A stretch of DNA of 64,000 nucleotides, taken from positions 10,537,338 to 10,601,337 of the forward strand of contig NC_088302.1 in NCBI RefSeq assembly GCF_032854445.1, in the 5' to 3' direction. The notes beneath the pieces were generated by a model, which searched no databases, had not been told where the DNA came from, and saw only the letters and a list, made by a program, of their open reading frames with translations. Positions 48,101 through 54,100 of the stretch are shown here, one piece after another; within the stretch, counting starts at the first letter, position 1, and every line of letters starts with the position of its first letter. The position numbers and the translations under genes were made by a program. This DNA comes from Liolophura sinensis. Lineage: Eukaryota; Mollusca; Polyplacophora; Chitonida; Chitonidae.

Positions 48101-51100
48101 TCGAACCACTTGTGTGGTGACCACGATAACAAAGTTTAAAACAAATAGGCCCTATATGGGGCTGTAAGTACCATTCAATTTCACATTCAAGTTCTGGTAA
48201 TTGCATATAATGGGTACCCTTATTGTATCTAATACTACATTTTATTTCTTGGGGTATCTCTTCATAAAAAGATGCAACGATGCTAAAATTAAGATTAAGA
48301 CCAAAATAGCCAGGTTTCAAAGAGAGGCCAAGAATTTGAGAGTATAAAATGACCAGCGGGCAACTTTTGTAAAAAATTTTCTTTACATATGTTGTATTTC
48401 ACTTAAAATTTTGTTGAAAACTTAGTTACTCAGTTGAAGTCTGGACAAGGCATTCTTATGGATGTACAACTTCTTGGTTTATTTAACACAACGTTTCGAT
48501 GCAGATACTAGCATCGTTATCAAGTGAATGACATCAAAATTACTACTGCGCTTATATATAGCAAGAGGAGCAAATGTCAACAGATAAAACAAAAAGAGGG
48601 TAAACAGTCCTCAGGGGGTTAAGGTGTCCTGGGGTGGGTGTTGGGGTACTGACTAGGCTCGGTGGGGTTCCTGAGCGGTTTGGAGGATTAGCAGATCATA
48701 AGCTGAGGGGAGGTAGATGCCGTGATCTCTGTTCAGGCTGGGCTTTAATCTCTTAATCTGGATGGCTTCCTGTAGTTTTCGTTTCTTCCAATGGGGCTGA
48801 TTCATGTTCAGTGTCCTGACTGTATTCCAGTTGATGTTGTGGGATGGGTTTTCATGTATGTGGTCAGATATGGCAGATTTGGAGTCAAGTTTCTGTACTG
48901 ATGATTGGTGTTCTTTAATTCTGGTTTGAAGCGGTCTGCCTGTTTCACCTATGTAGGAGTTGTTGCAACTGCATTTTAATTGGTAGACAACTCCTTTGGG
49001 TGGTTGGGGTTTGGTTGGTGTCTTCTTTCCTGTGGCATGTAGGTGGGTCTTTAGTGTGGTCAGGCTTCTGAAGACTGTTTCTATTCCAGTTGACTGTTTT
49101 ATTAGGCGGGCTATTTTGTGGCTGGTTGGACCAATGTAGGGGAGGTTGATTCGTATACCGGGGCCTTCCACGTGGACTCTAGGCTGTTGATTGAGTTCAC
49201 GTTGCGAGTACTTCTGGATGGTTTTATTTACTTGGTCTGCTGGGTATCCATTCAGGTGAGTGAAAACTGTACGCAGGTGTTGGATCTCTTCGTCTAAGTT
49301 GCTGTTACAGATGAGTTTAGCTCTCTTTGTGAGGGTGGAGATGATGCCGGTTTTGGTTTTGGGCGGGTGGTTGGACTTGTAGTGGATGTACTGGTCGGAG
49401 TGGGTCGGTTTGCGGTACACTGTGGTTTGGAGCGCGTCTGCTGTTCTCTTCACGTGGACATCTAGGAATGGTATTTGTTGATCTTTCTCAGTTTCCATGG
49501 TGAATTTGATGCGTTGGTGTTGTGAATTTAGGTGGTCAAGTAAGGCAGATGGATCTTGGTGGTGTTGAAGTGCGACGAAGGTATCGTCCACTTTTCGCAT
49601 CCAACAGATGGGCTGGATGGGTGACGTGGCTAAGGCTTTGTTCTCTAGTTCAGTCAGGTAGATCTCGGAGACAATCGGGGATAGTGGGGATCCCATGGGG
49701 AGGCCATGGATCTGCTCATAAATTGTGTCACCCCAAGTGAAGTAAGTGGATGACAGGCAACAGTCCAGTAGGCGGATGATATTATCTGGGGATAGGGATG
49801 TCGTCGGTGGTGTGGTTGTTATCTTATCTCTTATCACATCTAGGGCTTGGCTGGTTGGGACATTGGTAAATAGGTCAATAACGTCGTAGCTCACAAGTTT
49901 GCAGGGTTCATTGATCTGACGTATTTTGTTACAGAAGTCAGCTGAGTCTTTGATAAAGGAGTCGGCAGCCTTAGACCATAGTGATAGTAGTCTCGTGAGG
50001 TACTGGGCAGTGTTATAGAAGACAGTTCCTCTGGAGCATATCAGTAACCTGGCTTTTACAGGGTCCTTGTGGATTTTGATGGTTGCACGGGCATACGGTG
50101 CACGGGGGTGTTGCACTGTTAACTTTCGTTGGATTTCAGGTGTGATCTCACCACTGGTTTTGAGTTGGTTCAGGAGGGATCTGTGTTGCCGGTCGTACTT
50201 GTTGGTGGGGTCAGTTTTCAGGGTTCGGTATGTGGACTGGTCTGTTAGTAAGTTGTCTACCAGCTTGTTAAAATCTGTTTTGTCAAGAATGGCTGCGGCT
50301 TTTCCTTTATCAGTTGGTGCTATGGTTATGGACTTGTCTTTCTTCAGTTCGACCAGGGCTCTGCTTTCTTCTTTAGTTAGGTTGGTTCGTTGGGGTTGTG
50401 CTTTATCCAGTAGGGATGCTATCTGGTGGCGGAGGTAGTCGATGTGGCCCCCGGGTGCTAGTTGTTGAAGGCCTTCTTCGATGTCTACGATGAAGTCATC
50501 CTTGGGTATGGTTTTGGTGGTTGGGACAAAATTCAGGAAAGAAGACACCAACCAAACCCCAACCACCCAAAGGAGTTGTCTACCAATTAAAATGCAGTTG
50601 CAACAACTCCTACATAGGTGAAACAGGCAGACCGCTTCAAACCAGAATTAAAGAACACCAATCATCAGTACAGAAACTTGACTCCAAATCTGCCATATCT
50701 GACCACATACATGAAAACCCATCCCACAACATCAACTGGAATACAGTCAGGACACTGAACATGAATCAGCCCCATTGGAAGAAACGAAAACTACAGGAAG
50801 CCATCCAGATTAAGAGATTAAAGCCCAGCCTGAACAGAGATCACGGCATCTACCTCCCCTCAGCTTATGATCTGCTAATCCTCCAAACCGCTCAGGAACC
50901 CCACCGAGCCTAGTCAGTACCCCAACACCCACCCCAGGACACCTTAACCCCCTGAGGACTGTTTACCCTCTTTTTGTTTTATCTGTTGACATTTGCTCCT
51001 CTTGCTATATATAAGCGCAGTAGTAATTTTGATGTCATTCACTTGATAACGATGCTAGTATCTGCATCGAAACGTTGTGTTAAATAAACCAAGAAGTTGT

Positions 51101-54100
51101 ACATCCATAAGAATGCCTTGTCCAGTGTATCTCCTCACCGACTTCTAAATGCCACTTAAGCAAGTCAGTTGAAGTCTGTGAATTCTATGGGCTACAAGCT
51201 ACAGACAGGTAGAAACACTACCATTTACATGGCTGTCCAATTCATGCCCACAAAGTGAATCGGCTGGCCAAGATGGCTGCTTGCAACGTAAAAGTGAATG
51301 TACGTCTTTGCATGCTTTTTGCACAGCATATACGTGGTTTGTAACGGTAAAACACAAACACTGACGAAATGAAAACCTTAAATCCATCATCTTTTCAACT
51401 TGCATATTAAAGAGTTCTACTAGCCTGGACTTATCTATTCACATGTCTGAATAATCAACAAATGCTGAAGTTGTGGTGATGAATGTATGATCTCACAGTG
51501 CAACATGTAAATGTTAGAAAAAAAGTTTCCTTGTTTCACATTATATGGTCAACTTCTTTATAACCGGTGATACATTTACCACGTTAGCGGGTCTACATCA
51601 GGTTTTCCATGAATGTGAAATAAATAAAGAACCCTTATAAACACTAAAAAAAACTAGTAATACTGACGTAGATATAAGATATAATTAATCATAGCTTGAA
51701 TCCTGTGAAGATCCATGTACATAAAATATGGTCTGTGTTGGTCCATGAGGTCTATCATGATAGGCTTCAGGCCTTGAAGGCCCATGAACATGTAAGTTAT
51801 GGATGCACAATGTAGTTCTCTGGTCACATCACGATATTATTAACATATGTATGTACATACAATCATAAAATAAATTTAACAAGGAAACAGAATCTTGTGT
51901 TAAGAAAAGAGTTATTTCCTCAATAAAATCATGTTTTATCAGTGAAAGTGACAAGGAATTAAATACATCACTCGTCAAATTTAAGAAATAATTGTTCCCT
52001 ATTCCTCACTTCAAGTAGAATAGCATGACTTCAGGAAACTATTTCACACCTGTATATATGCTACTGACAGCAATGCTGTCTGTGAATGTAGATACAAGAC
52101 CATACAGTATGTATAAAACAAAGACCGTTTGTTACACCTTTAACCACAATGAAGCACTTTCCTATACATTATGCATCCCCTCAATAAGGCTTGATATAAT
52201 TCTACCACTCAACCTATTCTTATAAATGAACAAAATGCTTCAATGCTGCATATTTTATGGGTAGACATATTTATACATACATACGATGTACATGTATAGC
52301 AGATACTCGATCAACCATTTAGCACCAAAAATACTGTCAACAGGATTGCACCTTGGTGTTTAAATAATATTTCTGTATTCTGTTGGTTACATACAATGAA
52401 GTGAAATGAAGGTGAACATGTGTGTGAATCTTTAAACAAATGCTACTTGTAAATTTATACATTTGAAGGAAACTGGCAAATACTTAAGGATTGATTGGAT
52501 GGGATTCTAAATGTAGCTCTATTCAGCATTAAGCACAATTGTGAACACTGATCATTGTTAGTATCACTCTAGGGACATATGCACTTATGCAATTACAAGC
52601 ATATTCATATAAAACTGTTGCAGGTAATGTGATCAAATGGCATTCCATTAATCAATTCAGTTGTGGTTCTAGCATCTGTGACAAACTGTAAAGTATTTTT
52701 ATTCATTTGAATGTTATATAAACTATTCATTGTATACAGTCAAGAATATTTCACTCAAATTCTATCGATCTTAAAAATCTAGTGCATATACATATATATG
52801 CATACGTGTACAAAAAATATATGTAGCATAGATTACTTTCCAATATATGCAGGCCCCTATATACATGTATATGTATATTCAGATATTAACTGTAGATTTC
52901 TCAATTAAAATGTGCAACTTAAAGTGTATATCAAACATGTACATGTATAGTACAGTATAATCTATATATAATATACATAATTTTTACAGTAATGACATTG
53001 CAAGGTTGCATTTTTGTTTTAGCACAAACAATCCGCTTTCCTCCAAAGGCAATCTTTTAACGTAATTAGATCCTGTCATATCAATTCTACCAATCATCTC
53101 AACCAACTTTTTTCATTAATTATGGCATACACAAAACAAGGTCACTTAAGATAAAAAAAAAATGACAATCCTACCCTGTTAGTCTTAAATGTATTACCAG
53201 TACTGTACAAATATGTCAGACAATTATTGACTGAACTGGCCAACTATGTATTATGCTTAAAGTAAAAGGCTTGTCTGCGACAGTGTTTTTAATACAGGCC
53301 ACAAACTACATGTAATTACAACATAATTAAGTCCTTCTTAATACAAGTTTACTTTTTATCAAAATAAAAAAGTATGCCAACATAGTCCACTTAACAACGC
53401 CAGCATTAATTGATAGATAATTTTCTTTGTCCCTCCCAATGACATGTGAAACTGAATTTTATACCAAAAGAACATAATAAATAAAAATGGTGCATAGTAA
53501 ACACAATCACATCCCAGGTGACACTTCTCACATAAAGTTAAATGGATTTTTGAAAACTATCTGTCAGTATCAATCTTGGACAAAATATGACCATTCTAAT
53601 TTCACTGTCAGAAATCGCTTTATCTATTCACGATGGTTACTGCATTTCTTTCACAGGTAGTAGTATATCCTGCTGGGAAAATATCAAATCTGCATACCCA
53701 TAGCCCACTGAATATAGTCCCAGTTGGCTCAGATGTTGGCATTTGAATTACAAATGGTCGATCATAATGCCACTTCCAATGTCTGAGCTATCTCAGAGAC
53801 AAACTGTGCCAGTACTTACTACAGCCAACAGCACTGAAATGTTGTTTACATAAATGCAATGCTCAAGTGCAGCTGCTGCAAGACAACCCAGTTGTTAAAA
53901 AGTGCATATACTGAGAAGCTCATATTAACATCAGTTCAGACTTAAGTGTCGTTTAATTCATATTAGGATGAGACTGGTATTAAGACTTATGGTGTAACTT
54001 TATTAAACTTTTGAACAACTGACCCCTGTTCCTGTTCAGTAGTTGAACAGTGGTTCTTCTGTGTCTGAATGTAATCTTTCATAATATACAGTCATTAAAT

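What the first reader, a model, noticed from the sequence alone, without database searches (positions are those of the whole stretch)
48430..51178. Penelope-like element as a 592-bp palindrome around a truncated RT-nuclease gene
Two equal 592-bp arms (48441-49032 and 50534-51125) appear identical as inverted repeats. The minus copy is cut off at 5' exactly where the plus copy starts, sharing the bases CAG, and a 14-bp direct repeat brackets the whole. This looks like one insertion event that copied the RNA twice in opposite directions, a twin-priming-like outcome. The arms' identity suggests it is very young, so it may be polymorphic.
Basis: partly seen in the sequence, partly recalled or inferred. 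Interest (0 to 1): 0.75.

Follow-up and report, generated by a model that had tools for sequence, protein, structure and literature searches.

The report
Penelope retroelement inserted from both ends
A jumping gene of the Penelope kind appears to have been copied into this spot from both cut DNA ends at once, leaving two mirror-image copies; many relatives in the same genome carry the same lopsided signature, which points to how these poorly understood elements insert themselves.

Summary
Two 592-bp arms (48441-49032, 50534-51125) are 592/592 identical inverted repeats bracketed by a 14-bp direct repeat. They form a 5'-truncated Penelope-like element (PLE). It is not an oddity: of 77 insertion units examined in this genome, 45 are inverted with both element 3' ends facing outward. 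In all 45, one end carries a 39-nt "tail" (51126-51164 here) and the other does not. 13 of these 45 calls rest on reading by eye.

Neither arm here can be a copy of the other: the short arm alone has the tail, the long arm alone has 1,501 nt more. That speaks against self-priming, proposed for such copies in 2013 (PMC3846280), and fits both cut target strands priming separately, one at each of two RNA start sites. A purified anole PLE enzyme extends both strands and uses two start sites in vitro (PMC11167929). Arm differences are nearly all private, so both arms came from one RNA or one source locus. Inverted PLE copies and the tail are known; the strict one-of-each rule I did not find in what I saw (listings; passages of four papers).

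The parts
48430..48443 (.). target-site duplication, left copy (TCAGTTGAAGTCTG); its last 3 bases CTG also fit the element end
48441..50533 (-). long arm: 5'-truncated PLE copy, tail-less 3' end at 48441; 2,093 nt
48653..50566 (-). open frame (637 aa) with reverse transcriptase; its first 11 codons lie in the right arm, so the start of this frame is chimeric
   Evidence: Pfam RVT_1 3.4e-08
49475..49933 (-). reverse transcriptase domain (aa 212-364)
   Evidence: Pfam PF00078
48851..48997 (-). putative GIY-YIG-type nuclease region (aa 524-572); the same stretch is repeated in the right arm
   Evidence: NCBIfam TIGR01453 E 0.34, weak; motif seen by eye, motif recalled
50534..50536 (.). central junction, CAG shared by the two copies (2-3 nt microhomology)
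50534..51125 (+). short arm: 592-nt 3' part of the same element, identical to the long arm
51126..51164 (+). 39-nt tail, present on this side only
51006..51015 (+). TATA-like box of the pseudo-LTR
51037..51037 (+). predicted RNA 5' end (A of an initiator-like TCATTC, 88 nt before the tail-less end); 13 of 46 arm ends of short genomic copies lie within -82 to -92
   Evidence: recount
51165..51178 (.). target-site duplication, right copy

Best explanation
This is one recent insertion of a Penelope-like retroelement made by target-primed reverse transcription from both sides of a staggered cut. The element's enzyme cut the two target strands about 14 nt apart, leaving 3' overhangs (inferred from the duplication). 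The top-strand 3' end primed cDNA at the upstream start site of the RNA (tail-less end) and was copied for 2,093 nt. The bottom-strand 3' end primed at the second start site 39 nt further 3' (tail end) and was copied for 39+592 nt. The two cDNA ends were joined through 2-3 matching bases, and gap filling made the 14-bp duplication. The architecture, the duplication and the tail asymmetry are shown; strand order, overhang and joining are inferred.
For: Within the window: identical outward 3' ends, exact target duplication, tail on one side only. Neither arm can be a copy of the other: the tail is absent from the long arm, and 1,501 nt of the long arm are absent from the short arm. Across the genome: 45 of 77 examined insertion units are two-ended and 45 of 45 have one tail and one tail-less end; about 6e-14 if each end chose independently at 50% (computed for 44). 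This includes one copy of a family with about 60% DNA identity (L073, 13-bp duplication ACTCTGCAGGTTA). Of 27 differences between arms in 11 young pairs, 25 are states seen in no other locus (my count of the listing), and the L020 arms share a deletion of about 611 nt. Outer flanks are not inverted copies of each other in the 40 two-ended units tested. Literature: the anole PLE protein cleaves and extends both strands and initiates at two adjacent RNA sites that delimit the tail (PMC11167929, parts 1 and 2 of 4 of the text read).
Against: The in vitro paper saw no start-site difference between strands, so it does not by itself explain the one-of-each rule. No hammerhead ribozyme, reported in other PLEs, was found by Rfam. 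29 of 77 units are one-ended, internally primed or unresolved, and for 11 of them (L061, L062, L066, L068, L069, L070, L072, L075, L076/L077, L078, L079) the other end was not searched for beyond the alignments. Of the 45, the automatic pass found 35 and scored 3 of them tail-less on both sides; those 3, and 10 more, were called by eye, not blind. In 7 of 25 old copies no target duplication, or only one of 5-6 bp, was found. One genome only.
Confidence: 0.82

Rival explanations
1. Snap-back or self-priming: one arm is a copy of the other, made when the first cDNA (or an antisense RNA) folds back on itself.
For: Self-priming on an antisense template is proposed for inverted Penelope copies in Adineta vaga (PMC3846280, passages read); the arms are identical here.
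Against: An arm made by copying cannot carry sequence its template lacks. In the window copy, and in 8 other young loci where the tail arm is the shorter one (L003, L005, L008, L011, L017, L018, L020, L024), each arm has sequence the other lacks. Copying back to the primer would run on into flanking DNA, but outer flanks are not inverted in the 40 two-ended units tested; only in L045 did I see a short inverted stretch of flank inside the insertion.
Confidence: 0.05
2. Classical twin priming: the second target end primes inside the same RNA and only the 5' part is inverted.
For: Fits L009/L010 (30-33 nt inverted piece, about 21-23-bp duplication) and L016 (12-bp duplication), and probably L007, where no clean duplication was found.
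Against: In the window copy the second arm starts at the element 3' end plus tail, not internally, and duplicates 592 nt of the first arm.
Confidence: 0.05
3. Two separate insertions or a later inversion/recombination brought two copies together; gene conversion made the arms identical.
For: Tandem and composite copies exist (L015, L054-L056).
Against: One target duplication encloses both arms in 19 of 19 young two-ended units (18 by script; L054/L056 by eye). Young arms differ mostly by private changes, and six old pairs whose two arms both reach 72 nt differ by 8-31% (L027, L034, L038, L043, L051, L065), so conversion does not keep arms identical in the long run.
Confidence: 0.03
4. Assembly or read artefact (fold-back chimera).
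For: Palindromes can arise in library preparation (general knowledge).
Against: Flanking DNA is not part of the palindrome, target duplications are exact or nearly so, and arms in other loci carry different private mutations.
Confidence: 0.02

Closest known systems
Penelope elements with inverted pseudo-LTRs in Adineta vaga (PMC3846280; passages read)
   Different: There the tail is called optional and the mechanism proposed is self-priming on an antisense template; here the tail is on exactly one end in 45 of 45 two-ended copies and arm contents argue against self-priming
PAc, Poseidon of Anolis carolinensis (PMC11167929; parts 1 and 2 of 4 read)
   Same: Both target strands cut and extended; two adjacent internal RT start sites delimiting the tail
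   Different: An in vitro system; 'inverted' occurs there once, for a blocked primer end, and 'palindrom' not at all (word search), and no strand difference in start site was seen
LINE-1 twin priming (recalled; no paper read)
   Same: Second target end used as a primer; junction with microhomology
   Different: Primes internally, so inverts without duplicating; here both ends start at the element 3' end

Membership tests
Penelope-like elements (EN+) | Reverse transcriptase in a single ORF | tested here: met
   Pfam RVT_1 E 3.4e-08; a generic RT model, no PLE-specific model was tested
Penelope-like elements (EN+) | C-terminal GIY-YIG nuclease | tested here: inconclusive
   Only a weak NCBIfam hit, E 0.34 at aa 524-572, none in Pfam up to E 10; motif GVVY...SYIG seen by eye, motif recalled
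Penelope-like elements (EN+) | Pseudo-LTR: full unit preceded by a second, partial copy | tested here: met
   L008 reads pLTR-ORF-pLTR, unit 2,665 nt
Penelope-like elements (EN+) | Optional 30-40-nt tail at the 3' end | tested here: met
   39 nt; tail scores fall into two groups
Penelope-like elements (EN+) | Hammerhead ribozyme motif in the pseudo-LTR (reported in PLEs, not in all as far as I recall) | tested here: inconclusive
   No Rfam hammerhead up to E 1 or E 10; Rfam models may miss the short PLE type, no activity test possible
Penelope-like elements (EN+) | Target-site duplication of variable length | tested here: met
Penelope-like elements (EN+) | RT groups with PLE/telomerase RTs in a tree | not tested
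   No tree with reference PLE RTs was built
LINE-type twin priming | Inverted 5' part without duplicated sequence, second start internal | tested here: not met
   592 nt are duplicated and both starts are terminal

The most novel reading that the evidence does not exclude
PLE insertion is two-handed by design: a dimeric enzyme holds one RNA whose two start sites, about 35-39 nt apart, are each presented to one of the two cut target strands, so every complete event uses each start exactly once. The tail, called optional in the literature, would then be the footprint of the second start, and palindromes a standard product of PLE retrotransposition. Short palindromes whose arms reach about -88 would be run-offs to the RNA 5' end.
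Probability: 0.4. Interest if true: 0.8.

Novelty: new member of a known kind. Interest (0 to 1): 0.6.

Why it matters
How Penelope elements, a third class of eukaryotic retroelements related to telomerase, integrate is still open. The family in this genome gives a countable in vivo signature (one tail, one tail-less end, target duplication, inverted arms). It links a long-noted structural oddity to the two-strand, two-start activity seen in vitro, argues against the published self-priming idea for these copies, and yields sharp predictions.

Tried and rejected
Gene conversion as the reason for identical arms: not needed, because old pairs have diverged by 8-31% (six pairs whose arms both reach 72 nt; the other old pairs there are confounded, mostly by shorter arms) and young arms carry private changes.

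Arms from two different source copies: not supported. Arm differences are almost all private, against 2-4.5% mean difference between copies. But the partner arm is strictly the closest in only 5 of 11 pairs, because young copies are nearly identical, so one RNA versus two RNAs of one locus cannot be told apart. A 72-nt comparison was uninformative for the same reason (1 of 54 arms strictly closest, 22 ties).

Order of the two cDNAs: tail arms are shorter in some copies and longer in others, no clear trend; very short tail-less arms are harder to detect, so the comparison is biased.

Splicing as the cause of the 611-nt deletion shared by both L020 arms: no GT-AG edges. Hammerhead ribozyme: no Rfam hit. 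RNA folding of the start region gave nothing strong (z -1.8 and +1.5). Empty site or second haplotype: none seen (right flank only). The predicted RNA 5' end at -88 rests on a TATA/initiator match plus 13 of 46 arm ends at -82 to -92; 10 of the 46 lie beyond -92, several of them visibly alignment overruns into the other arm, and 23 stop short of -82; no null was computed and a ribozyme cut there is not excluded (recount). tRNA scan: none in the window.
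Full report
What is there. The window holds a composite insertion from 48441 to 51164. A minus-strand, 5'-truncated copy (48441-50533) meets a plus-strand copy (50534-51164) at a junction with 2-3 shared bases. The outer 592 nt are identical in the two. The plus copy has 39 more nt at its 3' end (51126-51164), which many relatives share and which leads into the ORF in a full unit. TCAGTTGAAGTCTG flanks both sides. The minus ORF (48653-50566) is a reverse transcriptase (Pfam RVT_1); the nuclease domain is only weakly supported by models.

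Census. The window's genome (G000, 609 Mb) was searched with the arm, its last 121 nt, two 25-nt end patterns and the protein. None of the DNA queries contains the tail, so they do not select for it. Limits: searches scored 40 of 233 and 40 of 230 candidates; the patterns matched 121 and 128 ends, of which only the first part was listed, and unlisted ones were not examined; two satellite-like arrays on C13 were only sampled (L053, L057); of the divergent protein hits only four were fetched (L072-L075). I fetched 80 stretches. With the window copy, and merging L009/L010 (segmental duplicates, 97.9% over 3.9 kb), L076/L077 (one place) and L054/L055/L056, these are 77 units. L054-L056 are joined by a matching 11-bp flank, 15.9 kb apart, of which I read about 6.6 kb.

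Classes. 45 units are two-ended with both 3' ends outward: 19 young (W = window copy, L001-L005, L008, L011-L013, L015, L017, L018, L020, L021, L024-L026, L054/L056), 25 of an older subfamily (L027-L029, L031, L034, L037-L041, L043-L046, L048-L051, L057, L058, L063-L065, L067, L071) and one of a family with about 60% DNA identity (L073). 29 are one-ended, internally primed or unresolved: L006, L007, L009/L010, L014, L016, L019, L022, L023, L030, L032, L033, L035, L036, L042, L047, L052, L060-L062, L066, L068-L070, L072, L074, L075, L076/L077, L078, L079. Of these, L022 is a plain one-ended copy with a tail and a 13-bp duplication. The other end was searched for in L006, L007, L014, L016, L019, L022, L023, L030, L032, L033, L035, L036, L042, L047, L052 and L060, L009/L010 and L074 (nothing found); in the other 11 it was not. 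Three (L053, L059, L080) could not be classed. Before four places had been left out (now L076-L080); they added no two-ended copy.

The one-tail rule. 114 end matches, some of them spurious, were scored against the tail. Scores fall at 0.56 and below or 0.76 and above, with one between (L051, 0.62, a tail with an internal deletion, called a tail). Automatic pairing found 35 two-ended loci: 32 with exactly one tail and 3 scored without any (L028, L045, L049). Reading those three shows a tail on one side in each: L028 plainly, L049 with an internal deletion, and L045 further out, with a 12-bp duplication ACACCCATTCTT and a short inverted copy of flanking DNA inside. Ten more two-ended units came from alignment, target duplication or eye (L005, L024, L029, L041, L050, L054/L056, L057, L058, L071, L073); these calls were not blind. 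All 45 have exactly one tail. With independent ends the chance for 44 is about 6e-14, and about 2e-6 for the 19 young ones alone (made before L045 was resolved).

Target duplications. All 19 young two-ended units have one: 11-17 bp by script with at most one mismatch, including bases that also fit the element ends (18 units), and 11 bp by eye for L054/L056. In the 25 old ones a duplication of 9 bp or more with at most one mismatch was found by script in 16 and by eye in L029 (8 bp) and L049; in L028, L034, L038, L046, L048, L057 and L064 none or only 5-6 bp was found. L073 has 13 bp. Tail-less ends lie mostly 0 to +5 nt from the reference point (L046 about +12); tail ends lie mostly at +37 to +39, in L027 and L048 apparently near +49. 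Outer flanks show no inverted similarity above shuffles in the 40 two-ended units tested (L029, L049, L054/L056, L057, L073 not tested).

Same template. In 11 young pairs the arms differ at 27 sites; at 25 of them (my count of the listing) the odd state is seen in no other locus, while copies differ from each other by 2-4.5% on average. L012 arms share 17 columns private to that locus, and L020 arms share a deletion of about 611 nt. L011 arms differ in structure: one has a deletion the other lacks. So both arms most likely come from one source, an RNA or RNAs of one locus.

Mechanism. Neither arm in the window can derive from the other, because each has sequence the other lacks. Hence two separate initiations at two sites, one per target strand, enclosed in one target duplication: two-sided target-primed reverse transcription. 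Central junctions of several young copies overlap by 0-5 nt when aligned to the unit, others have a few extra bases, as expected for end joining. In 23 short copies 13 of 46 arm ends lie at -82 to -92, near -88, where a TATA box and an initiator-like motif place the RNA 5' end; 10 lie beyond and 23 stop short. Run-off at the RNA 5' end is inference. Copies with an internally primed second end (L009/L010, L016, probably L007) suggest that ordinary twin priming also occurs.

Known work. Inverted pseudo-LTR copies and a tail on one of them are described as the typical Penelope structure, with self-priming on an antisense template as the preferred idea (PMC3846280; passages read). Purified anole PLE cuts and extends both strands and starts at two adjacent sites that delimit the tail (PMC11167929; parts 1 and 2 of 4 read, with a word search). 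A curation guide mentions inverted pLTRs and short 3' extensions (PMC8969392; passages). A 2026 D. virilis paper gave nothing on this in the passages shown (PMC12910113). The 2021 PLE paper by Craig et al. is not held and was not read; older Penelope papers in subscription journals were not available. In the listings of searches, and in the passages of these four papers, I saw nothing that ties inverted PLE copies to two-strand priming; the other listed papers were not opened.

Limits. One genome of unknown species; no raw reads, no second individual. The element is a new member of a known kind; the value lies in the countable rule and what it says about mechanism.

Noticed in passing
L061 429-489, L062 489-519: Right ends carry three (L061) or two (L062) copies of the last element bases at 30-nt spacing before the tail, as if the reverse transcriptase re-started or jumped several times at the start sites.
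   Followed up: partly
L044 381-918: A short PLE palindrome holds about a dozen copies of a 35-nt unit made of element positions -42 to -10: a minisatellite inside the insertion.
   Followed up: no
G000 C13:16697756-16724801 (L057) and C13:6564267-6611302 (L053): PLE ends have been amplified inside satellite-like arrays; in the first, the two units of about 1.3 kb that I read (L057) each carry a short inverted PLE pair.
   Followed up: partly
L045 190-500: Two-ended insertion with an internal inverted copy of about 37 nt of right-hand flanking DNA, a hint of template switching onto target DNA during repair.
   Followed up: partly
L009/L010: Two places 2.7 Mb apart on contig C2 share the same insertion and flanks (97.9% over 3.9 kb): a segmental duplication.
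   Followed up: yes
34285-36579, 267-1221, 40199-41065: Long tandem arrays in the window (159-bp unit x 14, 70-bp x 14, 62-bp x 13.5).
   Followed up: no
46977-47211 and 62822-63056: A second inverted repeat in the window, 235 nt at 89%, 15.6 kb apart.
   Followed up: no
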